Source: Sinorhizobium numidicum (GTDB lineage Bacteria > Pseudomonadota > Alphaproteobacteria > Rhizobiales > Rhizobiaceae). Taken from it: a stretch of 64,000 bases of DNA. The first letter of the stretch is position 1. Every line of letters starts with the position of its first letter. The translations under genes were made by a program, and so were the position numbers. Shown one piece after another: positions 7,855-40,423 of this stretch. The notes under the pieces are model-generated. The model did no database searches. It was not told the DNA's origin and was given only the letters and a program-made list of their open reading frames with translations. Location: NCBI RefSeq assembly GCF_029892045.1, contig NZ_CP120369.1, positions 1-64,000 on the forward strand, given 5' to 3'.

Positions 7855-9444
7855 TTATCCCCTTTCCCATCCCGCGCTAGACGAACAGAAGGCGGAAGCC
7901 TTGGCCAGAGCGTGCTTTTCACGCCGCCGCTGGACGGAGGAGGGGATGTTCATCGCCTCGCGATATTTTGCGACGGTACGACGCGCGATCTCAATACCGG
8001 CCTCTCGGAGCATGTCGACGATGTTATCGTCAGAAAGCAAGGCGTCGGCTGTTTCCTGGGCGATCATCGTGCGGATGCGATGACGGACGGACTCTGCCGA
8101 ATGGGCGTCGCCGTTCTCCGCCGAGCCGATTGAAACGGTGAAGAAATACTTCAGTTCGAACAGTCCGCGCGGCGTCAGCATGTATTTGTTCGAGGTGACG
8201 CGGCTCACCGTCGATTCATGCATCTTGATCGCGTCTGCGATGATCTTGAGGGTTAAGGGCCGCAGATGATCGACACCGTGCAGCAGGAAGGCGTCCTGCT
8301 GCCTGACGATCTCGCTCGCCACCTTCATGATCGTCCTGGCGCGCTGGTCGAGGCTGCGCGTCAGCCAGTTGGCATTCTGCAAGCATTCGCTGAGAAAGGC
8401 CTGGTCGGCACTGTTTTTCTGGGTGCCGCGCGAGATCTCGGCGAAATAGTCGTGATTGACGAGAACCCGGGGCAGGGCGTCAGGATTGAGTTCGACCAGC
8501 CAGCTACCGTTCGGCGCCGCGCGTACGGTGACGTCGGGTATGATCGCCTCGCTGACGCAGGTTTCGAAGCTGGTGCCCGGTTTCGGGTCGAGCTTGCGGA
8601 TTTCGGCGAGCATGTCGATCAGATCTTCCTCGTCAACGCCGCAGATTTTCTTGAGGCTGGCGAAATCGCGGCGCGCCAAAAGCTCCAGATTGGCGACGAG
8701 CGCGTCCATCGCCGGATCGAGTCGGTCGCGGGCGCGCAGTTGAATGGCGAGGCATTCGCCGAGCGTGCGCGCGAAGACGCCCGGCGGATCGAACTGCTGC
8801 AGGACGAGGAGCACGCGCATCACATCCTCGCTTGTCGTCCCGAGCCTTGCCGCTGTTTCCCCAAGGTCGGCATGCAGGTAGCCGGCGTCGTCGAGCTGGT
8901 CGATGAGATGCTGAGCTATCAACCGATCGGTGTGTGCGTGGAACGCGAAGGGAAGCTGCTCAACGAGCCCTTCCGTGAGGGTCTTCCGGCAGGCAACGAA
9001 ATCGTCGAGGTCGTATCGCTCGCCGTGGTCGCCGTTTTCGGCTCCCGGCATTGACTTCCATTGGCCGAGCAATTCGGGGGCATCGGCCCGCTGCGGCACA
9101 GTATCGTCCGGAAAAACATTGGCAAAATCGGCGTCGAGTTCGACGCTGAGCCTCTCGCCCGATGAGGAGGTGGCGCTGTCGTAAAGATCTCCCTGACCAG
9201 CTTCTTCGATCCCGTCAGGCGGGTCCGCGGCAAGCGCGATGGCCTCGTCAGGGCCCCGGTCCTGCGCACTGACAGGATCCTCGCCGTTCAGGAATTCGAG
9301 CAGCGGATTTTTTTCGACTTCCTGTGCGATGAACTGTGTCAGCTCCAGATGGGTCATTTGCAGCAGCTGGATAGACTGCATCAGTTGCGGCGTGATGACC
9401 AGCGACTGTGACTGGCGCAGACGAAGGCTGGCGGACAAGGCCAT
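7855..9444 (-). CDS. rpoN: RNA polymerase sigma-54 factor, symbiotic copy
   Basis: Sigma-54 directs RNA polymerase to -24/-12 promoters and needs an AAA+ activator such as NifA. The 529-residue product shows region I (LRQSQSLVITPQLMQSIQLL), an acidic region II, the core-binding and HTH parts (MHESTVSRVTSNKYM) and the RpoN box ARRTVAKYRE near the C terminus. I start it at the ATG at 9444 (MALSASLRLRQ), the usual RpoN start, rather than at 9507. It lies directly downstream of nifA on the same strand with 185 bases between; no convincing -24/-12 site was found there. Rhizobia with an rpoN on the symbiotic plasmid usually carry a second, chromosomal copy, so this one is probably a NifA-linked rpoN2. 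Confidence 0.95.
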   Translation of the reverse strand: MALSASLRLRQSQSLVITPQLMQSIQLLQMTHLELTQFIAQEVEKNPLLEFLNGEDPVSAQDRGPDEAIALAADPPDGIEEAGQGDLYDSATSSSGERLSVELDADFANVFPDDTVPQRADAPELLGQWKSMPGAENGDHGERYDLDDFVACRKTLTEGLVEQLPFAFHAHTDRLIAQHLIDQLDDAGYLHADLGETAARLGTTSEDVMRVLLVLQQFDPPGVFARTLGECLAIQLRARDRLDPAMDALVANLELLARRDFASLKKICGVDEEDLIDMLAEIRKLDPKPGTSFETCVSEAIIPDVTVRAAPNGSWLVELNPDALPRVLVNHDYFAEISRGTQKNSADQAFLSECLQNANWLTRSLDQRARTIMKVASEIVRQQDAFLLHGVDHLRPLTLKIIADAIKMHESTVSRVTSNKYMLTPRGLFELKYFFTVSIGSAENGDAHSAESVRHRIRTMIAQETADALLSDDNIVDMLREAGIEIARRTVAKYREAMNIPSSVQRRREKHALAKASAFCSSSAGWERG

Positions 9445-9629
9445 GCTGATGCGATGCTCCCGTGAAATCTCCGCGGCCAACGTCTCTTTTAGACGGGCCA
9501 TTATCAATTTGGCCCAAAAATGTCAGACTGCGACAGCGGTCAAATTGTGTCTCGAATCAGTCGTGTTTAAGGACAAACGGAGGGGCAGGAGAGCGGCGAC
9601 ACTGGCGACGCTTTGATCTCACCGGCAGC

Positions 9630-11276
9630 TTAGAACTTCTTCACCCGAATGCCATGCCGGCGCAGGGCATAGCCGACCTGCCGCGGTGTCAGGCCGAGAA
9701 TACGAGCAGCCCTGGCCTGAACCCAACCGGCCTCCACCATAGCGCTGACCAGCCGCTCACGATCGGTCAGATGCGGTGCTTCTCCTGCGGAGTTGGCCGG
9801 CGGTCCAATCGCGGTTCGATTACCGGGAGTAAACTCATTGATGGCATTGCCGCAAGGCCAACCGCCAGCTCGTTTCCAGAGGAGTGAAGAATGGCACTGT
9901 CCATTCTGGCAGGCGAAATCTGATGCGGTAATCGTTGTTGAACGTGCGAGTGTCGCGGTCCTTCGCACGCAGTTTTCTAGCTCGCGAACGTTGCCAGGGA
10001 AGTCGCATTTCGCCAAGAACTCAAGTGCCGAGGGCGCGAAGGCAAGTTCACGATCATTCTCCTTGTTGAATCTGTCAAGGAAAACTTTCGCAAGTCGTGG
10101 AATGTCACCGTCGCGCTCCCTAAGTGGCGGCAAAGTGATGGGGACCACATTGATGCGGTAATAAAGGTCGGCCCTGAACTCCCCGTTCGCGACAGCCGTC
10201 TCGAGGTCCTTGTTGGTGGCGCATATGAGTCGGACGTCGACCTTCAGCGTCTTTGTGCCGCCGACTCGCTCCAGTTCACCTTCCTGCAGGACACGTAACA
10301 GCTTCGCTTGAAATGCCGGCGAAATCTCGCCGATTTCATCAAGCAGCAACGTTCCGCCGTCCGCTAGTTCGAAGCGGCCTGCTCGCTGAGAGATAGCCCC
10401 GGTGAAAGCACCTTTCTCGTGCCCAAACAGCTCCGATTCCAAAACGCCTTCAGACAGTGCGGCGCAATTCAACTTGACGAAGGGCTTCTTTCGCCGGGAT
10501 GAGAGTTCGTGGATTGCCTTGGCAAAGGATTCCTTGCCAGTCCCGCTTTCGCCCCTGAGAAGGACGGTTGAATTGGTCTCTGCCACGAACGTGATGGTTT
10601 CGACCACCGCCTTGAGTGCGGGACTTTCCCCGACAATCCAGCCGATTTTGACAGGCCGCTGCCGGGTGGAGCCCTGCCTCTCCTCGTCACGTGAATTCTT
10701 CGGTGCTTGTTGCTCTTCGGCGAACGGTTGGCCATCCCTTCTAAGACTGCGATAGAGCCGGATGGCCGCGCCTGCAAGATTGGCGACCATAGTCAGAAAC
10801 CGTACGTCCTCCTCGCAATCATTATTAGAGGTAACGGTTCTGGCGCGCTCGATCCATAATATTCCAAGCGTTTTTTGATCGACCTTCATCGGAACACCGA
10901 TGAACGTACCCGGAACATTGCCGGTTGAAGGCGATAGAAGTTCGGCTTGGAATAGTTCCGATGTACTAACGTCCGGTATGACGAGCCGCGCGCCGGTCGC
11001 GATGATTCGGTCTATTGCGACCCTAGGTACGATGTAGTGAGCGGCTCCCGGAGATTCATGCCCAGCGCCGGAGGTTACGGTTATCTCTGGGTCTCCTTCA
11101 GCGGCCGGAACGACGATGCCGCAGTGGCGCATTGGCAGAAGCAAGGAGAGGGTATTTACGAAATTCGCAAGCGTGATCTCAAGACCAGTGGGAGCAAATA
11201 AAGACTTTGATATCCGGTACATTCCGGTGGACAACATGTCCTGTTTGTGCATGTTTTTTCGAGACAGTTCAGCCAA
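9630..11276 (-). CDS. nifA: NifA, sigma-54-dependent activator of nif and fix genes
   Basis: Master activator of nitrogen fixation. The 548 residues show an N-terminal GAF-type domain (about 20-180), an AAA+ domain with Walker A GESGTGKE and the sigma-54-contacting ESELFGHEKGAFTGA, and a C-terminal Fis-type HTH (RAARILGLTPRQVGYALRRHG). Between AAA+ and HTH lie cysteines including CQNGQC (C-X4-C), the hallmark of oxygen-sensitive rhizobial NifA. A TTG at 11276 has a good ribosome site (GGAGTAGGACCA); the ATG at 11252 (MHKQDMLS) is an alternative with weak Shine-Dalgarno but fits remembered S. meliloti NifA. It follows fixX by 222 bases on the same strand, so both readthrough from fixABCX and its own promoter are possible. 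Confidence 0.96.
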   Translation of the reverse strand: MAELSRKNMHKQDMLSTGMYRISKSLFAPTGLEITLANFVNTLSLLLPMRHCGIVVPAAEGDPEITVTSGAGHESPGAAHYIVPRVAIDRIIATGARLVIPDVSTSELFQAELLSPSTGNVPGTFIGVPMKVDQKTLGILWIERARTVTSNNDCEEDVRFLTMVANLAGAAIRLYRSLRRDGQPFAEEQQAPKNSRDEERQGSTRQRPVKIGWIVGESPALKAVVETITFVAETNSTVLLRGESGTGKESFAKAIHELSSRRKKPFVKLNCAALSEGVLESELFGHEKGAFTGAISQRAGRFELADGGTLLLDEIGEISPAFQAKLLRVLQEGELERVGGTKTLKVDVRLICATNKDLETAVANGEFRADLYYRINVVPITLPPLRERDGDIPRLAKVFLDRFNKENDRELAFAPSALEFLAKCDFPGNVRELENCVRRTATLARSTTITASDFACQNGQCHSSLLWKRAGGWPCGNAINEFTPGNRTAIGPPANSAGEAPHLTDRERLVSAMVEAGWVQARAARILGLTPRQVGYALRRHGIRVKKF

Positions 11277-27085: not shown

Positions 27086-28303
27086 GTGCAGAGCAACCCC
27101 ATTCCAGACCACGTTCCGCCCGGTTTTGTGAAGGACTTCAATCTCTTCACGTCGCCGGGCATGGCACCGACACCCAACGGAGACCCGCACGCAGCTGTGG
27201 CATGCGTCCATGGAGGCGCCCCGATCTTTTTTTCTCCCCATAACACGCGCGATGGACGGGGGACCTGGGTGATCACGCGCGCGAGTGACCAGCGCAAGGT
27301 GCTGCAAGACCTCGAGACCTTTTCCAGTCATCGCAGCATCTTCTCCTCCGCACTCGGCGAAAGTTGGCCAATGATCCCGCTCGAGCTCGGTCCACCGGCC
27401 CATGGTGTCTTTCGTGCGCTACTAAATCCGCTGTTCTCACCTAGGCGGGTGGAAGCGCTGGAGCGGATTGTCCGTCAGCAAGCGAGCGCGCTGACGGACC
27501 GGATCGCCCGATCGCGGACCAGCTGTGACGTCATGAAGGATTTTGCCTATCCATTCACAGCTAACGTTTTCCTTGGGTTTCTGGGGCTCTCGGATAGCCG
27601 ATCCGACATGCTACTTGGCCGGGTAAGCGATTTGCTCCACGGCAACGAAGTCAAGCGAACGGCAGCGGCCCAATCGATCGTGGAGTTCATTGACGAAGTT
27701 GCAGCGATGCGCCGCAAGGAACCAGCCGCTGATTTCATGACCTTCGTCGTGCAGGCGCACATCGAGGGTCGCTCCTTAGCCAACGAGGAAGTCCGTGGCA
27801 TCGGTGTACTCTTCTTGGTCGGGGGACTCGACACGGTCGCAGCCGCGATAGGCTTTGACTTGGCCTATCTTGCACGCAATCTGAATGATCAGGAATTGCT
27901 GCGGAACGAACCGGACCGGATCGCGCTCGCGGCTGAAGAACTATTGCGCGCCTATTCAACCGTTCAGATGATCCGCGTGGCAACAAAGGATATTGACTTT
28001 GAAGGCGCGCCGATTCGTAAGGGAGACTATGTTTCCTGCGCAACGATGATTTCCAATCGTGACCCCGCAGAATTTGCGTGCCCTAATACCATCGATCTGG
28101 CGCGACAGGACAACCACCACACCGCCTTTGGCTATGGTCCTCATCTTTGCCTCGGAGCACATCTGGCCCGGCGAGAGATTGTCATTGGGCTCGACGAATT
28201 TCTGGCACGCATCCCCACTTTCCGAATAAAGGACGGGACGGCGCCGATCACCCATGGCGGCCACGTATTTGGGATTCAAGACCTGAATCTGGCCTGGGGT
28301 TGA
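27086..28303 (+). CDS. cytochrome P450 (CYP127-like)
   Basis: 405-residue soluble bacterial P450, a heme mono-oxygenase. Motifs: I-helix GVLFLVGGLDTVAAAIG, K-helix EELLR (ExxR), and heme loop FGYGPHLCLGAHLARRE with the cysteine ligand. GTG start at 27086 is about 8 bases after AAGGAG. A NifA site and sigma-54 promoter lie 330-450 bases upstream, so it is probably expressed in nodules. NGR234 carries a similar P450 near its nif genes (y4vG); its substrate is unknown. No ferredoxin or reductase gene is recognised nearby. Confidence 0.92.
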   Translation: MQSNPIPDHVPPGFVKDFNLFTSPGMAPTPNGDPHAAVACVHGGAPIFFSPHNTRDGRGTWVITRASDQRKVLQDLETFSSHRSIFSSALGESWPMIPLELGPPAHGVFRALLNPLFSPRRVEALERIVRQQASALTDRIARSRTSCDVMKDFAYPFTANVFLGFLGLSDSRSDMLLGRVSDLLHGNEVKRTAAAQSIVEFIDEVAAMRRKEPAADFMTFVVQAHIEGRSLANEEVRGIGVLFLVGGLDTVAAAIGFDLAYLARNLNDQELLRNEPDRIALAAEELLRAYSTVQMIRVATKDIDFEGAPIRKGDYVSCATMISNRDPAEFACPNTIDLARQDNHHTAFGYGPHLCLGAHLARREIVIGLDEFLARIPTFRIKDGTAPITHGGHVFGIQDLNLAWG

Positions 28304-29326: not shown

Positions 29327-29342
29327 TGTCCGTTCAGCGACA
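29327..29342 (+). promoter_or_regulatory. NifA upstream activator sequence for nifH
   Basis: Perfect TGT-N10-ACA (TGTCCGTTCAGCGACA), about 90 bases upstream of the -24 box of nifH. Confidence 0.88.
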
Positions 29343-29414: not shown

Positions 29415-30425
<1,011 letters not shown>

Positions 30426-30527
30426 ACGCCGCAGCACGCAAGGGGCGCGGACCCTGATACGGCGCGCCATTCTAAGAACGACGTCCAGTTGGTGAGGCAT
30501 CACCCGAACCTTGAAGGGACAGGCCCA

Positions 30528-32030
30528 ATGAGCCTCGACTACGAGAATGACAGTGCTCTGCATGAGAAGCTTATCGAGAAAGTGCTGTCGCAGTATCCAG
30601 ACAAGGCGGCGAAGCGCCGCAAAAAGCACCTTAGTGTCGCAACGGACAAGGAGGTGGCCGGCGAGGAAGGACAGGTGGTTTCCGAATGCGACGTAAAGTC
30701 GAATATTAAGTCCATTCCAGGCGTGATGACGATCCGCGGCTGCGCTTATGCCGGTTCGAAGGGGGTAGTTTGGGGTCCGATCAAGGACATGGTCCACATC
30801 TCGCATGGGCCGGTCGGTTGCGGTCAGTATTCCTGGTCACAGCGGCGCAACTACTACGTCGGCACGACGGGTGTCGACACTTTCGTGACGATGCAGTTCA
30901 CCTCCGACTTTCAGGAGAAGGACATTGTCTTCGGTGGTGACAAGAAGCTGGAAAAGATCATCGACGAGGTCCAGGAACTTTTTCCCCTTAACAAAGGCGT
31001 CACCGTGCAGTCCGAATGTCCGATAGGCTTGATTGGCGACGATATCGAGGCGGTATCGCGCAAAAAGGCCAAGGAGCACGCGAAAACGATCGTGCCGGTC
31101 CGTTGCGAAGGCTTCCGCGGCGTCTCGCAATCGCTCGGCCACCACATCGCCAACGACGCGATACGCGATTGGGTCTTCGACAAGACCGAAATCGAGTTCG
31201 AAACCGGTCCTTACGACGTCAACGTGATCGGCGACTACAATATCGGCGGCGACGCCTGGGCCTCACGCATCCTGCTCGAGGAGATGGGGCTGCGCGTGAT
31301 CGGCAACTGGTCGGGGGACGCCACGCTCGCCGAAGTGGAGCGTGCGCCAAAGGCCAAGCTCAACCTCATCCACTGTTATCGGTCGATGAATTACATCTGT
31401 CGGCACATGGAGGAAAAGTACGGTGTCCCTTGGATGGAATACAATTTTTTCGGTCCATCTCAAATCGAAGCTTCCATGCGCGAGATAGCCAAGCATTTCG
31501 GGCCGGAAATCGAAGACAAGACCGAGAGAGTCATCGCCAAGTACCGGCGCTTGGCGGATGCTGTGATCGACAAGTATTGGCCGCGCCTCCAGGGCAAGAG
31601 GGTGATGCTCTATGTGGGCGGCTTGCGCCCCCGTCACGTCGTCACCGCCTACGAGGACCTCGGCATGGAGATCGTGGGCACCGGCTACGAATTCGCCCAC
31701 AACGACGACTATCAGCGCACCGGCCATTACGTGAAGAAGGGCACGCTAATCTATGACGATGTAACCGGGTACGAACTGGAGAAGTTCATAGAAAGGATTC
31801 GCCCGGATCTCGTCGGCTCCGGCATCAAGGAGAAATACCCGGTGCAGAAGATGGGCATCCCATTCCGTCAGATGCATTCCTGGGATTATTCCGGGCCGTA
31901 TCACGGCTATGACGGCTTCGCCATCTTCGCCCGCGACATGGATCTAGCCATCAACAATCCGGTCTGGGACCTCTACGACGCGCCCTGGAAGAAAATCACG
32001 GTGCCTACGGCAGCAGTTGCAGCCGAATGA
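30528..32030 (+). CDS. nifD: nitrogenase MoFe protein alpha chain
   Basis: Catalytic subunit that holds FeMo-co. 500 residues with P-cluster cysteines in [30 protein letters not shown] and STCPIG-like [12 protein letters not shown], and FeMo-co ligands in IHCYRSMNY and [15 protein letters not shown] at 30528 chosen by family start (MSLDYEND). A perfect 13-bp hairpin separates it from nifK. Appears intact. Confidence 0.98.
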
Positions 32031-32035
32031 GAGCG

Positions 32036-32070
32036 AGGTCTCTCGCGGACACAAGGGCCGCGAGAGACCT
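32036..32070 (+). other. nifD-nifK intergenic hairpin
   Basis: Perfect inverted repeat AGGTCTCTCGCGG / CCGCGAGAGACCT with a 9-base loop, 5 bases after the nifD stop, no T-tract. More likely an mRNA-stability or processing element than a terminator, because nifK has no visible promoter of its own. Confidence 0.65.
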
Positions 32071-32131
32071 GCAACGTCCCGAACGTCTCTGTGCCGCCGT
32101 ATAGATGCCAGATGAAAAAAAGGTGACCACT

Positions 32132-33673
32132 ATGCCGCAATCGGCCGAAAAAATTCTCGACCATGCTCCCCTGTTCCGCGAGCCGGAATACAGGCGAATG
32201 TTCGCGGAGAAGAAGCTAAACTTCGAATGCTCACATCCGGAACAGATCGTTACTGATCAAAGCGAATTCACCAAAAGCTGGGATTATCGCGAGAAAAACC
32301 TCGCCCGCGAAGCTCTCGTGGTGAACCCCGCTAAAGCCTGCCAGCCGCTCGGCGCCGTGTTCGCGGCGGCGGGATTCGAGCGGACCATGTCCTTCGTCCA
32401 CGGCAGTCAGGGCTGCGTTGCCTATTACCGTTCACATCTATCGCGGCATTTCAAAGAGCCTTCATCGGCCGTTTCGTCCTCGATGACGGAGGATGCGGCG
32501 GTGTTCGGCGGTCTGAAGAACATGGTCGACGGGCTCGCCAATACTTACACTCTCTATGATCCGAAGATGATTGCCGTCTCTACCACCTGTATGGCGGAGG
32601 TCATTGGTGACGATCTGCATGGTTTCATTGAGAACGCCAAGAGCGAAGGCGCAGTCCCTCCCGAATTTGACGTGCCATTCGCTCACACGCCCGCCTTCGT
32701 CGGCAGCCACGTCGACGGCTATGACAGCATGGTCAAAGGCATCCTGGAGCACTTCTGGAAAGGCAAGGAGCGCACGACAGCGGCTGGCACGATTAACATC
32801 ATCCCGGGCTTCGATGGCTTCTGCGTCGGGAACAATCGCGAACTCAAGCGCCTGCTCAACCTTATGGGCGTGTCCTACACCTTCATCCAGGATGCCTCCG
32901 ACCAGTTCGATACGCCGTCCGATGGCGAATTCCGCATGTATGACGGAGGCACGAAGATCAAAGACGTGAGAAGAGCATTCAATGCGGAGGCGACAGTGTC
33001 ACTGCAGCACTATAATACTCGCAGGACCCTGGAATATTGCGAACAGGTCGGACAGGCGACGGCGTCCTTCCACTATCCGCTCGGTATTAAGGCTACCGAC
33101 GAATTCCTGATGAAGGTCTCGAAGATTTCCGGCAAGGAAATCCCTGAGGCAATCCGCCTGGAGCGCGGCCGGTTGGTCGACGCTATGGCAGACAGCCAGT
33201 CTTGGCTGCACGGCAAGAAATACGCGATCTACGGCGACCCTGACTTCGTATACGCCGTGGCGCGGTTCGTCATGGAAACCGGTGGCGAGCCAACACACTG
33301 CCTCGCCACCAACGGCACCTCAGCCTGGGAAGCCGAGATGAAGGAATTGCTGGGATGCTCACCGTTCGGTAAGGATGCACAGGTGTGGGCGGGCAAGGAC
33401 CTCTGGGCAATGCGCTCACTGCTTTTCACCGAACCGGTGGACCTGCTGATCGGCAATTCCTATGGCAAGTATCTGGAGCGCGACACCGGAACACCTCTGA
33501 TCCGGTTGATGTTTCCGATCTTTGACCGGCACCATCACCATCGTTTTCCCCTTATGGGCTACCAAGGCGGACTGCGTGTGTTGACGGCGATCCTCGATAA
33601 GATCTTCGACAAGCTCGATCGCGACACGATGCAGCCGGGTGTGACCGACATCTCTTATGACCTCACTCGCTAA
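32132..33673 (+). CDS. nifK: nitrogenase MoFe protein beta chain
   Basis: P-cluster-holding subunit, 513 residues. Visible ligands: [33 protein letters not shown], and [13 protein letters not shown] terminus is intact (TDISYDLTR). Start at the ATG at 32132 ([11 protein letters not shown]) with AGGTGA upstream; the ATG at 32105 is less likely. Confidence 0.98.
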
Positions 33674-33680
33674 GAGCGGC

Positions 33681-33698
33681 GGCCGGCGTAGGCCGGCC
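33681..33698 (+). other. small nifK-nifE intergenic hairpin
   Basis: GGCCGGC / GCCGGCC with a 4-base loop, 7 bases after the nifK stop. Position resembles the nifD-nifK hairpin; may tune mRNA segment stability. Confidence 0.4.
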
Positions 33699-33727
33699 AT
33701 CTTTCGATCAATTTAGGGTCCAGCGCA

Positions 33728-35200
33728 ATGCTCTCGCTCAGTGCCAAAATCCAGGATGCCTTTAACGAGCCTGCCTGCGAGAACAACCGCAGCAAGGACG
33801 CCGAGGCTCGCAAGAAGGGCTGTTCAAAGCCGCCAACACCCGGAGCGGCAGCTGGCGGCTGCGCTTTCGACGGCGCCAAGGTGGTTCTGCAGCCGATCAC
33901 TGACGTTGCTCATCTGGTCCACGCACCGCTCGCCTGCGAAGGCAATTCTTGGGACAATCGCGGCACGGCGTCGTCAGGGCCAATGCTGTGGCGCACGAGC
34001 TTTACCACTGACCTCACAGAACTCGACGTGGTGATGGGGCACAGCGAGCGGAAGCTTTTCAAAGCGATCCGGGAGATCAACGAAGCATATGCGCCGCCGG
34101 CGATCTTCGTCTATGCGACCTGTGTGACGGCACTGATCGGCGACGACATCGAGGCGGTGTGCAAGCGGGCGGCGGAAAAATTCGGCTTACCGGTGGTGCC
34201 GATTGATGCGCCGGGCTTCGTCGGTTCAAAGAACCTCGGTAATAAGCTGGCCGGCGAGGCGTTGCTCGACCATGTCATCGGCACGGTAGAGCCGGATGAT
34301 GCCGGGCCGCGCGACATCAATATCCTTGGGGAATTCAACCTATCCGGCGAATTCTGGTTAGTAAGGCCGCTCTTGGACAAGCTTGGCATCCGTGTCCGCG
34401 CATGTATTCCTGGAGACGCGCGCTACCTCGATATTGCCACAGCGCACCGTGCACAGGCAGCTATGATGGTGTGCTCGACCGCTCTCATTAATCTTGCCCG
34501 CAAGATGGAGGAACGCTGGGATATTCCGTTCTTCGAGGGCTCCTTCTATGGCGTTACCGACACCTCGGAAGCACTCCGGCAGATCGCTGAATTGGTCGTA
34601 AAGAAAGGTGCTGAGCCCGAGCTTATCAGTCGCACTGAAGCGCTGATTGCAGCAGAAGAGGCAAAGGCGTGGAGAAGACTTGAGGCCTACCGCCCTCGTC
34701 TCCAAGGCAAGCGTGTTCTTCTCAACACCGGCGGTGTCAAGTCATGGTCGATCGTCCACGCGTTGACGGAGTTAGGCATGGAGATCGTCGGAACATCGAT
34801 CAAGAAATCGACCGTCGATGATAGGGAGCGGATCAAGCAGATCCTCAAGAACGAGAACCACATGTATGAGACGATGACACCGCGCGAGCTATACTCGAGT
34901 CTAGCCGAACAAAACGCTGACATCATGCTGTCGGGCGGTCGCACCCAATTTATCGCGCTTAAGGCAAAAATCCCTTGGCTCGACATCAATCAGGAACGCC
35001 ATCACGCTTACGCCGGCTATGAGGGCATGGTGGAACTCGCGCGCCAGATCGACCTGGCAATCCACAACCCCATCTGGGAACAGGTGCGCGAACCGGCGCC
35101 ATGGGAGGAGCCCTTGGCCGGGCAGGAGAGATCGGGAGAAGAAAGCGCAAGCATCCTGAATCTATGCGGGAAGACCGCCCGCCACGTCGGTGAGTGTTGA
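33728..35200 (+). CDS. nifE: NifE, FeMo-co scaffold alpha subunit
   Basis: Forms the NifEN scaffold on which the NifB-co precursor matures to FeMo-co. 490 residues, paralogous to NifD: GGCAFDGAKVVLQPITDVAH, VHAPLACEGNSWDNRG, FVYATCVTALIGDD and the late LSGGRTQFIALKAKIPWLD. Full length. Its end overlaps the region of nifN start candidates, so the two are tightly coupled. Confidence 0.97.
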   Translation: MLSLSAKIQDAFNEPACENNRSKDAEARKKGCSKPPTPGAAAGGCAFDGAKVVLQPITDVAHLVHAPLACEGNSWDNRGTASSGPMLWRTSFTTDLTELDVVMGHSERKLFKAIREINEAYAPPAIFVYATCVTALIGDDIEAVCKRAAEKFGLPVVPIDAPGFVGSKNLGNKLAGEALLDHVIGTVEPDDAGPRDINILGEFNLSGEFWLVRPLLDKLGIRVRACIPGDARYLDIATAHRAQAAMMVCSTALINLARKMEERWDIPFFEGSFYGVTDTSEALRQIAELVVKKGAEPELISRTEALIAAEEAKAWRRLEAYRPRLQGKRVLLNTGGVKSWSIVHALTELGMEIVGTSIKKSTVDDRERIKQILKNENHMYETMTPRELYSSLAEQNADIMLSGGRTQFIALKAKIPWLDINQERHHAYAGYEGMVELARQIDLAIHNPIWEQVREPAPWEEPLAGQERSGEESASILNLCGKTARHVGEC

Positions 35201-35217
35201 GGTATTCGGTGGCCTGC

Positions 35218-36381
35218 ATGCTTCCCCAAGCCAAATCAACGGCAATTAACCCTGTGAAGTCGTCCCAGCCGCTTGGCGCTGCCTTCGCTTTTCTGGGCGT
35301 CGACGGCGCAGTGCCACTGTTCCACGGCAGCCAGGAGTGTACCAGCTTTGCACTTGTGCTGCTCGTGCGGCATTTCAAGGAAACGATCCCGCTGCAGACG
35401 ACCGCGATGGAAGAGCTGGAGACGATTCTCGGCGGCGAGGATCGTCTCAAAGATGCGATCCTCAATTCCAAAGCGCGTGCAGAGCCGCAGTTTATCGCGG
35501 TCTGCACGACGGCACTGGTAGAGACCGGCGACGACGACACCACTTGCGACCTCGCGAACATCAAACTTAAGCGGGCAAGAGAACTTACAGGTACAGAAGT
35601 GGTACTCGCCAACGCGCCGGAGGCGCTAGAGGAGGGTTGGTCCAAGGCTGTTACCGCTATCGTCGACCGAATTGCGCGGCCGGGAAAGCAAAAACCCGAC
35701 CCGAAGAAGGTGGGGGACATACGCGATCTCGGCGCGGCGACGAAGTGCAGGGGCACGGGCGAGCACATGCGGCGACCGGCCGAAGCGTTGCAACGGTTAA
35801 CCGCTGAGCCTTACGTGCTGTTTGAGTCGCTGGCGGGGCTGAAGAATGCGGGCAGGTTTATCTTGCTGCTTACAACAGTGTCGGGCGAACAAGCTCCGGC
35901 GAAGGTCCTTCGCGGCCGCATGCAGTTGCAGGATGCCATGCTCGACGGGCATTTCCATCTGGGCGGCAAGAAGATAGCGATCTCCGCGGAGCCGGATCAA
36001 CTCCTGCAGCTCTCGGACTTTTTTGTCGGCATGGGCGCAAAAATTTCAGCCGCCGCCACCACCACCGGGACTTCAAAAATATTGCAAAAAGTGCCGGCCG
36101 AGACGGTCCAAGTCGGCGATCTTTGTGACCTGGAACGCCTCTCTGCTGTCGCCCACCTTCTCGTGACGTATTCGCACGGCCGTCCAGCTGCAGAGCGTCT
36201 CGCCATTCCGCTGATGCATGCCGGATTCCCTGTCTTTGACACGTTGGGCAGTCAGCACAAGCTTACAATCCTGTATCAGGGAACGCGCGACATGATCTAC
36301 GAGGTTGCCAATATCATGCAGGCTGACCAACACCCGCCGACGCCTGACGCACTTGATCCAGTCTGTAATCGGGGATTGTAG
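35218..36381 (+). CDS. nifN: NifN, FeMo-co scaffold beta subunit, with large internal deletion
   Basis: Partner of NifE. N-terminal part is typical (KSSQPLGAAFAFLGVDGA, LFHGSQECTSFALVL, FIAVCTTALVETGDDD) and so is the C-terminal half (GEHMRRPAEALQRL, AAERLAIPLMHAGFPVFDTL). Between DPKK and GDIRDLG about 60 residues present in other NifN (the ILPG...HLT...SGSLDG...GGTS segment) are absent without loss of frame. The product is 387 residues versus roughly 440-470 usual. Start at the ATG at 35218 (MLPQAKSTA) by family alignment; a GTG at 35194 overlaps nifE. Scaffold function is doubtful. Confidence 0.88.
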   Translation: MLPQAKSTAINPVKSSQPLGAAFAFLGVDGAVPLFHGSQECTSFALVLLVRHFKETIPLQTTAMEELETILGGEDRLKDAILNSKARAEPQFIAVCTTALVETGDDDTTCDLANIKLKRARELTGTEVVLANAPEALEEGWSKAVTAIVDRIARPGKQKPDPKKVGDIRDLGAATKCRGTGEHMRRPAEALQRLTAEPYVLFESLAGLKNAGRFILLLTTVSGEQAPAKVLRGRMQLQDAMLDGHFHLGGKKIAISAEPDQLLQLSDFFVGMGAKISAAATTTGTSKILQKVPAETVQVGDLCDLERLSAVAHLLVTYSHGRPAAERLAIPLMHAGFPVFDTLGSQHKLTILYQGTRDMIYEVANIMQADQHPPTPDALDPVCNRGL

Positions 36382-36382
36382 A

Positions 36383-36880
36383 ATGAGCTCCATTCGTCGT
36401 TTCTCGCTCGTCAGTGATCGGTTCCAGAAACAGATGCCGGAACGGCAGGCAGGCGCATTGCGCATAGCGATCGCCACTCAAGACCTGAAAGGACTGAACG
36501 CCCATTTCGGCTCGGCTAGACATTTTGCCGTTTATGACGTGCTGCCCCACGAGTGGAGTTTTGTGGAAGCGATTGCATTCGACGAAGTTTCTGACGAAAG
36601 CGGTACGCATCGAACCGAAGGTGATGACCGCATCGCTCCGAAAGTTGCAGCGTTGAAGGGCTGCCAGCTCTTATTTTGTCTCGCTATCGGCGGGCCTTCG
36701 GCAGCCAAGGTTATTTCGGCAAAGATTCATCCGATCAAAGTGCCGCAGCCTGAATCCATCCAGCACTTGCTTTCGCGCATCCAGACAATGCTCAGGACGG
36801 CTCCTCCACCTTGGCTACGCAAGGTGGTAGCGGAAGCAGGCGCCGCCAAAGAGAAACCCTGCTTCGAGAGCGAGGGCTGA
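36383..36880 (+). CDS. nifX: NifX, FeMo-co precursor carrier
   Basis: 165-residue carrier of NifB-co/VK-cluster between NifB, NifEN and NifDK. Family features: ALRIAIATQDLKGLNAHFGS, ARHFAVYDV, then GCQLLFCLAIGGPSAAKVI. ATG at 36383 begins 1 base after the nifN stop, so translation is coupled. Confidence 0.93.
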   Translation: MSSIRRFSLVSDRFQKQMPERQAGALRIAIATQDLKGLNAHFGSARHFAVYDVLPHEWSFVEAIAFDEVSDESGTHRTEGDDRIAPKVAALKGCQLLFCLAIGGPSAAKVISAKIHPIKVPQPESIQHLLSRIQTMLRTAPPPWLRKVVAEAGAAKEKPCFESEG

Positions 36881-36883
36881 AGC

Positions 36884-37369
36884 ATGACAACGTTAGCTGA
36901 TCCGGCGAGTATCCCGGCTGTCGACGACGGCAAACTCCTTTCCACCCCCTTTATCAAATGCCTCGTGCGGCTGATACGGGCTCAGGATTCCTACGGATCG
37001 TGGGACGGCAAGTGCGACACTGAGCTGCTGGCCAAGTTCATCGTTAAGGAGGAACAACGCCGTGCAATCCCAATCATCGGCGACCCCGATCCGTACGTGC
37101 TGTGGAGGCTCGATGTTTATTACGCCGCGGTCGGCCTTTCTATCGAAGCGCGCTCTGACCTATTCGTATCGCGGACGATGGAGATCAGCGCCGAGGGTTT
37201 CGGGCGGGTAGTATTTACGACCAAGCGGTTGGTCGTGCTGTCGAAGACCCTGCGCGGCGTTCACCGCTTCGGCTTCGATACGCTACGCAAATGCGCCAAG
37301 ACCGGGACAAAGCTGGTGAAGGATGCCGTCGCAGTCATTGAAGCTTATCCAGACGTAGCGCGGGCGTGA
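36884..37369 (+). CDS. NifX-associated nitrogen fixation protein (DUF269)
   Basis: 161-residue DUF269 protein found behind nifX in many diazotrophs; role in FeMo-co assembly is presumed but not settled. Typical stretches: FIKCLVRLIRAQDSYGSWD, FVSRTMEISAEGFGRVVF and LVVLSKTLRGVHRFGFDT. Starts 3 bases after nifX and is followed by an overlapping downstream gene, so it belongs to the nif operon. Confidence 0.92.
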   Translation: MTTLADPASIPAVDDGKLLSTPFIKCLVRLIRAQDSYGSWDGKCDTELLAKFIVKEEQRRAIPIIGDPDPYVLWRLDVYYAAVGLSIEARSDLFVSRTMEISAEGFGRVVFTTKRLVVLSKTLRGVHRFGFDTLRKCAKTGTKLVKDAVAVIEAYPDVARA

Positions 37370-37395
37370 TGGAGCCGGTTGTGGGGAAAAAGGCC

Positions 37396-37599
37396 ATGTC
37401 AGATTTTGAAGAATTGAAAAAGCAAGTCCGCAAGCTGCAGTCGCGTGCTGGAACTGCGAAGATGGAATTGCACGACCTTGCGGAGGATCTTCCGGTCAAC
37501 TGGACCGAAATCATGGCGGTCGCGGAGAGGACATTCCACGCTTTTGCTGAGCTGGAAGCTGCCAAGAAAGAATTCGCTGCGTCGGAGAATTCACGATGA
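37396..37599 (+). CDS. CCE_0567-type (DUF683) nif-associated protein
   Basis: 67-residue helical hairpin protein that always travels with DUF269 in nif clusters. Sequence MSDFEELKKQVRKLQSRAGT then AKMELHDLAEDLP and FAELEAAKKEF. I start it at the ATG at 37396; the ATG at 37366 overlaps the previous gene and adds an atypical leader. Its stop overlaps the ferredoxin start by 4 bases. Confidence 0.88.
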   Translation: MSDFEELKKQVRKLQSRAGTAKMELHDLAEDLPVNWTEIMAVAERTFHAFAELEAAKKEFAASENSR

Positions 37600-37913
37600 T
37601 ATGCTCATTCGTGACCCGCGACGGGTCCAGGTGGATGCCGAAATATCTGACCGCCATCGACGGTGCGACATGCATCGGCTGCGGTCGTTGCTTCAAGGTT
37701 TGCTCACGCGAGGTAATGCACCTTCACGGCATCGACGATGCAGGTGAAATTCTCGGCGTGTGCGATGGTGAGGACGATGACTTCGATGGCGATCTCAATC
37801 GTATGATCATGGTCGTCGACCACCCAGGCCGCTGTATCGGCTGCGGGGCCTGCGCCCGCGTCTGCCCCAAGAATTGCCAGACTCATATCGGGGCGGACAC
37901 GATTGCCGCATGA
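37596..37913 (+). CDS. fdxB: nif-specific ferredoxin III (FdxB type)
   Basis: 105-residue ferredoxin with two 4Fe-4S sites: CIGCGRCFKVCSREVM (about residues 26-41) and CIGCGACARVCPKNC (about 81-95). Likely electron donor or assembly factor for nitrogenase. ATG at 37596 overlaps the previous stop (ATGA), which fixes the start and the operon membership. Confidence 0.92.
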   Translation: MICSFVTRDGSRWMPKYLTAIDGATCIGCGRCFKVCSREVMHLHGIDDAGEILGVCDGEDDDFDGDLNRMIMVVDHPGRCIGCGACARVCPKNCQTHIGADTIAA

Positions 37914-38944: not shown

Positions 38945-40423
38945 ATGCTGAATCTGACGAATGCGAGGCGGATAGGAATCGTCGGAGGCGACCTTGTGGG
39001 CTGGCTTGCCGCTATTGAGCTACGCCGGGTCTTCGAACCAGACGTGGATGTCGCAGTCATAGAGACTCCGGAGCTATTTTCATTCGGCCTTGGGGAGGGC
39101 GGCGCGCTCAATCTCGTTGATACGTTGTGCCGTAATCAGCTCGACTTGGACATTTTCGTTGGTGAAGCCGGCGCCACGTACAAGCTTGGAGTGCTCTATG
39201 ACAATTGGAGAGGTGGAGGAATTTCAGATCGGTACTATCGTCTGTTCTGCGGACCGGGCGTCCCGGAAATCGAATGGCGCGTCGACGGCTTCTTTCCTCT
39301 GCTGTCGGCGAGAATCGCGATGGGCGAGGACCTTCACACTTGCGTTCCAGGATTCGACGCAATCGCAAGGCACGCGTCGCAGCAGGATATCGAGCGATTG
39401 CTGGCGACCGGCCAGTCCGGCCTTTGTCCATCCTACCACTTTGACGCTGAGGCTTTCGAGCGGTACCTGAAGCGAGTCGGATTGAGCCGTGGGATCACTG
39501 CCCATGCGAGCGCTGTATGCGGGATGAGGCTGGACGAGCGGGGGTATGTGCGGTCCTTGCATCTCGGCGGCGAACAACTGGAGGTCGACTTCGTGATCGA
39601 TGCGTCGGGATTTGCCAGATTGGGGCTCGGCAGTGTTTTCGGTACACGCTGGCGGTCTTTCGCAAACACTTTGCCGACCGATCGTGCGATCACTTTTGAT
39701 CTTGAGCCGTCAGAAATGTGCCCCGATCCCGTAACCCGTTCGACTGCCATGAAGGCCGGATGGATGTGGGAGGTCCCACTGAATCGCAAGATCACTGCGG
39801 GATACGTGTTCAGTAGCAGACATGCGGATCATGCCATTGCAGTCGCAGAGGTCGAGCACCGCCTTGGACACCGCGTCCAGCCGAAGCACTTGCTTTCGCT
39901 CGATCAAGGCTATTTCGAAACGGCGTGGGTCAATAACCTTGTGGCACTCGGAACGGCGTCCGGTTTTGTAGAGCCGCTGGACGCAGCGCTTGCGACCCAC
40001 ACGTTCGAACAGCTAAGGAATATAGGACGCGTTCTCACCAACGGAGGTGGGGTCGTGCCTGCTCACACAATCGAAGCTTATAACAGCGCTAACGCGCGCT
40101 CGTGGACAGGAGTTCGAGACTTCCTGCGGCTGCACTATGATTGCAAACGAAATGACGCACCGTTCTGGCGAGATATTGCGGCAGCCGAGTTGCCAGAAGG
40201 CTATGCCGAGCTGAGGGCCTGTTTTCACAAACGGACACCTCGTTGGATCGATATTCAACCCTATGTCGGAAGCGGGTGGCACGCGTTGTTTCACCAGCTT
40301 GATTGGATATCCGTGGCGGCTCCTCTCGGCGTCGTGCCGGCGACGGCTGCCCGAGCAGAGCTACGTCGGCTTTCGGCGGATATTGTTGAAAAACTTGGCA
40401 TTGCCGATGCTTGGGACGCGTGA
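38945..40423 (+). CDS. flavin-dependent halogenase-like protein
   Basis: 492-residue member of the tryptophan-halogenase/FAD mono-oxygenase family. FAD fold IGIVGGDLVGWLAAIEL at the start, the lysine region GATYKLGVLYDNW where the catalytic Lys is expected, and the halogenase motif WxWxIP as GWMWEVPL. Deviations: GEATxP is GEGGALN, and the usual PLEST near residue 345 reads EPLDAALAT, so the expected Glu is Asp and the following Ser is Ala. The last residues (RRLSADIVEKLGIADA) lie in the inverted-repeat end of the adjacent IS, so the original C terminus may have been replaced. No partner flavin reductase seen. Starts 13 bases after the ExoX-like copy. Confidence 0.8.
   Translation: MLNLTNARRIGIVGGDLVGWLAAIELRRVFEPDVDVAVIETPELFSFGLGEGGALNLVDTLCRNQLDLDIFVGEAGATYKLGVLYDNWRGGGISDRYYRLFCGPGVPEIEWRVDGFFPLLSARIAMGEDLHTCVPGFDAIARHASQQDIERLLATGQSGLCPSYHFDAEAFERYLKRVGLSRGITAHASAVCGMRLDERGYVRSLHLGGEQLEVDFVIDASGFARLGLGSVFGTRWRSFANTLPTDRAITFDLEPSEMCPDPVTRSTAMKAGWMWEVPLNRKITAGYVFSSRHADHAIAVAEVEHRLGHRVQPKHLLSLDQGYFETAWVNNLVALGTASGFVEPLDAALATHTFEQLRNIGRVLTNGGGVVPAHTIEAYNSANARSWTGVRDFLRLHYDCKRNDAPFWRDIAAAELPEGYAELRACFHKRTPRWIDIQPYVGSGWHALFHQLDWISVAAPLGVVPATAARAELRRLSADIVEKLGIADAWDA

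What the first reader, a model, noticed from the sequence alone, without database searches (positions are those of the whole stretch)
35670..35740. NifN scaffold subunit has lost about 60 internal residues in frame
The protein runs DPKK-V-GDIRDLG-AATKCRG-TGEHMRRP. In NifN proteins I know, DPKK is followed by a segment with ILPG, HLT, SGSLDG and GGTS before the EEIRxLG...GEHMRRP stretch. The rest of the gene is well conserved and in frame, so this is a clean deletion rather than general decay. NifEN is essential for FeMo-co, so the strain may be Fix- or depend on a second nifN.
Basis: partly seen in the sequence, partly recalled or inferred. Interest (0 to 1): 0.72.

Follow-up and report, generated by a model that had tools for sequence, protein, structure and literature searches.

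The report
Decaying spare copy of nifN
One of two nifN genes on a rhizobial symbiosis plasmid has lost a stretch of its middle and is eroding, most likely because an intact second nifN elsewhere on the same plasmid does the work; this is ordinary gene loss, caught partway.

Summary
The deletion is real. The window lies on the 629-kb symbiosis plasmid of Sinorhizobium numidicum. Its operon nifN (35209-36381) lacks 55 codons at 35709/35710 and 3 more near 35621, compared with full-length relatives. It is not a sequencing artefact: two separately sequenced stocks of the type strain carry it, and S. garamanticum shares both deletions. Nor is it a clean lesion in a healthy gene. Of 163 NifN positions invariant in 41 other sequences, this copy breaks 36 (20 deleted, 16 substituted); the others break 0-3. 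The S. garamanticum copy is also frameshifted. A full-length second nifN lies on the same plasmid (C3:90134-91567, outside the window) and breaks 0 of 163. It belongs to the lineage of the stand-alone nifN of S. meliloti and sits behind remnants of nifH and nifE. Best explanation: the operon copy became redundant and is decaying, and NifEN is assembled from operon NifE plus orphan NifN. S. meliloti 1021, whose nifHDKE operon has no full nifN, looks like the end state. In the genus sample, the 3 of 30 nif-bearing genomes without an intact operon nifN are the only ones with an intact meliloti-type orphan. A Fix- strain is not indicated, but fixation was not tested.

The parts
35209..36381 (+). 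nifN1: operon nifN with internal deletions, 390 aa (annotated 'nitrogenase component 1' in LMG 27395); ORF upstream in-frame start at 35194
35709..35710 (+). junction of the 165-nt (55-codon) in-frame deletion, after K167
   Evidence: coordinates
35621..35622 (+). approximate junction of a second, 9-nt (3-codon) deletion, shared with S. garamanticum
   Evidence: coordinates
33728..35200 (+). nifE, 490 aa, the only full-length nifE found in the genome; predicted partner of the orphan NifN
29532..30425 (+). nifH
30528..32030 (+). nifD
32132..33673 (+). nifK
36383..36880 (+). nifX, starting two bases after the nifN1 stop
36884..37369 (+). nifX-associated gene
37596..37913 (+). fdxB
29327..29342 (+). 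NifA-type activator site TGT-N10-ACA upstream of nifH (consensus recalled)
9633..11231 (-). nifA, open frame over the family cut-off

Best explanation
The window's nifN is a redundant operon copy undergoing decay. The plasmid also carries an intact stand-alone ('orphan') nifN of the S. meliloti type, about 26 kb beyond the window's end and a few kb from nodABC. Once that copy could supply NifN, selection on the operon copy relaxed. It lost 55+3 codons in frame (short near-repeats at the large junction would allow replication slippage), then gathered substitutions at positions otherwise invariant in NifN, and in S. garamanticum it was also frameshifted. FeMo-cofactor assembly most likely runs on a mixed NifEN made of operon NifE and orphan NifN. 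Shown: the deletion, the decay, the intact second gene, the lineages of both. Inferred: that the orphan is expressed and sufficient, and that the short protein is non-functional.
For: Second full-length nifN on the same plasmid. nifN1 breaks 36 of 163 invariant columns; 41 other rows break 0-3; the orphan breaks 0. Between S. numidicum and S. garamanticum, nifN1 has 13 synonymous and 21 nonsynonymous changes against 54 and 24 for nifH+D+K+E+X, P=0.003. S. garamanticum copy frameshifted and without an annotated CDS. The orphan groups with S. meliloti nifN and has nifH and nifE remnants upstream. Of 30 nif-bearing genus genomes, the 3 without an intact operon nifN are the only 3 with an intact meliloti-type orphan. 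S. meliloti 1021 has nifE and nifX 495 nt apart with no full nifN between, and its nifN elsewhere.
Against: The nifN1 frame is still open in S. numidicum and in P0002. The S. numidicum-S. garamanticum pair does not separate nifN1 (dN/dS 0.55) from the orphan (0.47): P=1.0, and neither differs from neutral, P=0.11 each. The orphan's activator site is one base off the recalled consensus in both species, though exact in S. meliloti, and the promoter scan did not flag its sigma-54-like element. A nifN relic in the S. meliloti spacer is not above shuffled sequence. No expression or fixation data.
Confidence: 0.82

Rival explanations
1. The short NifN still works: it is a trimmed but functional scaffold subunit, or is kept for a lesser role such as translational coupling of nifX, and the orphan is the spare.
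For: The frame is open over the whole length in S. numidicum and in P0002. Five of six lineage indels keep the frame: 165, 9, 3, 3 nt and 3 codons, against one of 1 nt (counted; protein searches favour open frames, so the count is biased). The cluster cysteine C44 is kept. nifX starts two bases after the nifN1 stop.
Against: 36 of 163 invariant positions lost or changed; the sister copy is frameshifted while its nifX stays 97% identical. In low-confidence models the region just after the deletion, well modelled in the orphan (block means 65-83), drops to 27-38 in nifN1.
Confidence: 0.07
2. Neither nifN is effective and the strain is Fix-: the operon copy is broken and the orphan is unexpressed or incompatible with this NifE.
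For: The orphan's activator site is one base off the recalled consensus; the orphan and the operon NifE come from different lineages.
Against: The orphan breaks 0 of 163 invariant columns and has dN/dS 0.18 against S. meliloti nifN. S. meliloti has the same pairing of lineages. The plasmid type is found in two species isolated from legume nodules.
Confidence: 0.08
3. The gap is an assembly or sequencing artefact.
For: None found.
Against: Separate Nanopore+Illumina genomes of two stocks of the type strain, and of a second species, carry it; a further, 92%-identical protein has the same two gaps.
Confidence: 0.01

Closest known systems
S. meliloti split arrangement: nifHDKE operon without nifN plus a stand-alone nifN near nodD1 (its old name fixF and its Fix- mutant phenotype are recalled, not read)
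   Same: Same pairing of nifE and nifN lineages; the stand-alone nifN lies near nod genes behind a nifE remnant, with a shared promoter stretch
   Different: S. meliloti 1021 has no full nifN in the operon; S. numidicum still has a partly deleted one, and larger nifH/nifE remnants before the orphan
S. mexicanum ITTG R7, two nifN genes on one symbiosis plasmid
   Same: Two nifN genes on one plasmid, one of them apart from nifHDKE
   Different: Both are full length, and neither is of the meliloti orphan lineage
nifN of Rhizobium sp. 007, operon type
   Same: Nearest full-length relative of nifN1, 81.8% DNA identity, same operon order
   Different: Complete, 460 aa, without the two deletions

Membership tests
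Functional NifN (FeMo-co scaffold subunit), applied to nifN1 | Full length, including the segment equivalent to about 3pdi_B 172-228 | tested here: not met
   58 codons missing (mapping)
Functional NifN (FeMo-co scaffold subunit), applied to nifN1 | Family-invariant residues kept | tested here: not met
   36 of 163 lost or changed, against 0-3 in 41 other rows
Functional NifN (FeMo-co scaffold subunit), applied to nifN1 | Homology to NifN (Pfam PF00148) and place after nifE | tested here: met
Functional NifN (FeMo-co scaffold subunit), applied to nifN1 | Forms NifEN and supports fixation | not testable with these tools
   needs mutants and protein
Pseudogene / decaying paralogue, applied to nifN1 | Relaxed constraint relative to its operon | tested here: met
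   P=0.003 against nifH+D+K+E+X
Pseudogene / decaying paralogue, applied to nifN1 | Disrupted frame | tested here: inconclusive
   open in S. numidicum and P0002, frameshifted in S. garamanticum
S. meliloti-type orphan nifN, applied to C3:90134-91567 | Same clade, nifE remnant upstream, near nod genes | tested here: met
S. meliloti-type orphan nifN, applied to C3:90134-91567 | NifA/sigma-54 promoter | tested here: inconclusive
   Shared TTGGCACGAGTTTTGA seen by eye; pattern scans did not flag it; activator site one base off

The most novel reading that the evidence does not exclude
The short NifN is still made and keeps a reduced role, for instance holding NifE, coupling nifX translation, or acting as a trimmed scaffold beside the orphan NifN. 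This would explain why five of six lineage indels keep the frame.
Probability: 0.07. Interest if true: 0.65.

Novelty: new member of a known kind. Interest (0 to 1): 0.33.

Why it matters
It explains a puzzling annotation ('nitrogenase component 1'; no CDS listed in the sister species) and shows a likely intermediate step of how the S. meliloti split nifHDKE / nifN layout can arise: an orphan copy first, loss of the operon copy later. It also predicts a naturally mixed NifEN, with NifE and NifN from different lineages. And it warns against inferring a Fix- phenotype from one damaged nif gene without searching the whole genome.

Tried and rejected
Assembly collapse: rejected.

Relatives sharing a working short form: in PLSDB, 2 of the 61 records that match the 125-base junction query cover at least 80% of it, S. 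numidicum and S. garamanticum (collection of 72,556). Among 33 genus genomes only G000 and G010 match nifN1 across the junction. An exact 29-base junction pattern gave 0 hits in genome contigs, where records near the window may be left out. The protein search (7999 candidates scored, best 120 of 1854 listed) listed two further short forms, P0002 (named S. meliloti by a source) and P0003; P0003 reads as the S. garamanticum product. I fetched 6 of the 120 sequences; the rest were judged by length and coverage only.

A nifN relic in the S. meliloti nifE-nifX spacer: suggestive only. Collinear matches to the NifN C-terminus end at nifX, but the best score (22.3 bits) does not exceed the best of 100 single-base shuffles (22.7).

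Structure: AlphaFold2 models of nifN1 and of the orphan were poor (mean pLDDT 46.8 and 52.4), so no fold search was run; only the contrast after the deletion is quoted, as weak support.

Literature: searches listed nothing. Searches gave listings and abstract starts only; of those I opened PMC3899959 alone (nifN passages), which gives NifN trees and not this case. (species names and host) are listings too; from them I read PMC10281163 (part 1 of 2) and passages of PMC6144797. The species description is not held. I therefore make no claim that this case is absent from print.

Full report
Where it is. The window is bases 1-64000 of contig C3 (629445 bp) of a 6,722,812-bp genome. A 41-kb stretch around the nif operon is identical to the plasmid NZ_CP120372.1 of Sinorhizobium numidicum LMG 27395. 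The genome paper (PMC10281163, part 1 of 2 read) reports two separately sequenced stocks of the type strain, with plasmids of 629,446 bp (LMG 27395) and 629,445 bp (CIP 109850); by size the window is most likely CIP 109850.

What is in the sequence. The operon runs nifH-D-K-E-N-X-(nifX-associated)-(CCE_0567)-fdxB at 29532-37913. nifN (35209-36381) encodes 390 aa, against 460 in Rhizobium sp. 007, T136 and R. sullae. Compared with these it lacks 165 nt at 35709/35710 and 9 nt near 35621, and its start codon is GTG instead of ATG. The length difference also includes the longer C-terminus of those relatives. S. garamanticum LMG 24692 has the same two deletions, plus -3, -3 and -1 nt; the last breaks the frame, and no nifN CDS is listed there. 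The two species have distinct core genomes but closely similar nif genes (dS 0.01-0.07), so the lesion probably travels with the plasmid (inference).

It is decay, not a clean deletion. In an alignment with 41 other NifN sequences, 163 columns are invariant in all 41. nifN1 loses 20 of these by deletion and changes 16 more (for example G43E, next to the cluster cysteine; the cysteine's role is recalled). Each of the 41, tested against the other 40, breaks 0 to 3. The S. garamanticum copy was tested only over its N-terminal part and shows 16 substitutions, one of which is its GTG start codon read as V. Between the two species nifN1 differs by 13 synonymous and 21 nonsynonymous changes (dN/dS 0.55), against 54 and 24 summed over nifH, D, K, E and X (P=0.003); the nifX-associated gene (0.44) was not in that sum. 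nifN1 is not distinguishable from neutral (P=0.11). Neither is the orphan on this pair (8 and 11, dN/dS 0.47, P=0.11), so this test does not separate the two nifN genes. The longer comparison shows constraint on the orphan (0.18 against S. meliloti nifN) and a higher value for nifN1 (0.34 against Rhizobium sp. 007, where T136 against 007 gives 0.21).

The second nifN. The search of the own genome found one other nifN, at C3:90134-91567, 477 aa. It breaks none of the 163 columns and is 98.7% identical in DNA to its S. garamanticum counterpart. It lies a few kb from nodABC, behind remnants of nifH (residues 1-60 and 175-202) and nifE (230-377), and before a nifX-associated gene. It thus looks like the leftover of a second nif operon. 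A stretch resembling a sigma-54 element (TTGGCACGAGTTTTGA) is shared with S. meliloti (aligned). I picked it out by eye; the pattern scans did not flag it, nor the similar element before the window's own nifH. The activator site is one base off the recalled consensus in both species and exact in S. meliloti 1021. The operon nifE is the only full-length nifE found; nifA and nifB have open frames over their family cut-offs.

Lineages. In unrooted DNA trees (quick method) the orphan groups with S. meliloti nifN, G013 and the broken G022 C60 copy (5 rows, SH-aLRT 99), on the side of the other Sinorhizobium, Mesorhizobium and Microvirga nifN. The operon nifN groups with Rhizobium sp. 007, T136, R. 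sullae, R. lentis and R. johnstonii (7 rows, 100). The operon nifE falls with the same Rhizobium set plus S. meliloti-type nifE (10 rows, 100). Both S. meliloti and the numidicum/garamanticum plasmids therefore pair a nifE of one lineage with a nifN of another.

Genus survey. 30 of 33 genomes have nifN and nifE matches; G006, G015 and G030 have none. Of these 30, 27 have a full-length nifN next to nifE (open frames of 446-529 aa). G022 has a broken orphan, a broken nifE-nifX set without nifN, and an intact complete operon: the opposite outcome. These genomes are related and several are drafts, so this is a pattern and not a set of independent tests. In S. meliloti 1021 the nifE-nifX spacer is 495 nt; a nifN relic there is suggestive but not above shuffled sequence. 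S. meliloti and S. numidicum have different lesions, so the losses at least ended separately.

How it works, most likely. An orphan nifN made the operon nifN dispensable. The operon copy then lost the segment that in the orphan's model forms a strand-helix-strand unit (167-174, 181-193, 197-200; block means 64-84 in an otherwise poor model), about A. vinelandii NifN 172-228 by alignment, and eroded further. NifEN would be made from operon NifE and orphan NifN. S. meliloti 1021 shows the same pairing, with one nifN in the 38 kb examined; that its nifN is needed for fixation is recalled, not read. The steps not shown are expression of the orphan, assembly of the mixed NifEN, and fixation.

What speaks against it. 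The short frame is open in S. numidicum and in P0002 (384 aa, named S. meliloti by a source), and five of the six lineage indels (165, 9, 3, 3 and 1 nt, and 3 codons in P0002) keep the frame. Protein searches favour open frames, so this count is biased; still, some residual constraint on the frame cannot be excluded. Whether the P0002 strain carries the orphan is not known.

Noticed in passing
G000:C3:186199-186381 and 186737-188050 (outside the window): A fragment matching the last 64 positions of NifA lies just before the intact nifB, while full nifA is at window 9633-11231; another sign of rearranged or duplicated nif regions.
   Followed up: no
G000:C3:220096-220293 (outside the window): A nifX fragment with an internal TGA.
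   Followed up: no
L009:10295-13858: A 1187-aa ORF with long internal repeats near the orphan nifN; the S. garamanticum counterpart is annotated as a Ulp1-family isopeptidase.
   Followed up: no
L065, L066, L064 (genome G022): A sister genome with a broken meliloti-type orphan nifN, a nifE with three stops followed by a split nifX, and an intact complete operon: the reverse replacement.
   Followed up: partly
L009:7612-7992 and L037:12223-12657: The nifX-associated gene behind the orphan nifN is shorter in S. numidicum than in S. garamanticum, with an internal loss.
   Followed up: partly
L010:7862-8350 and 9417-9905: Rhizobium sp. 007 has two nifX-associated genes close together.
   Followed up: no
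window near 38996-40423 and 27086-28303: A tryptophan halogenase family gene and a cytochrome P450 gene lie beside the nif operon (positions converted from the annotation with the offset).
   Followed up: no
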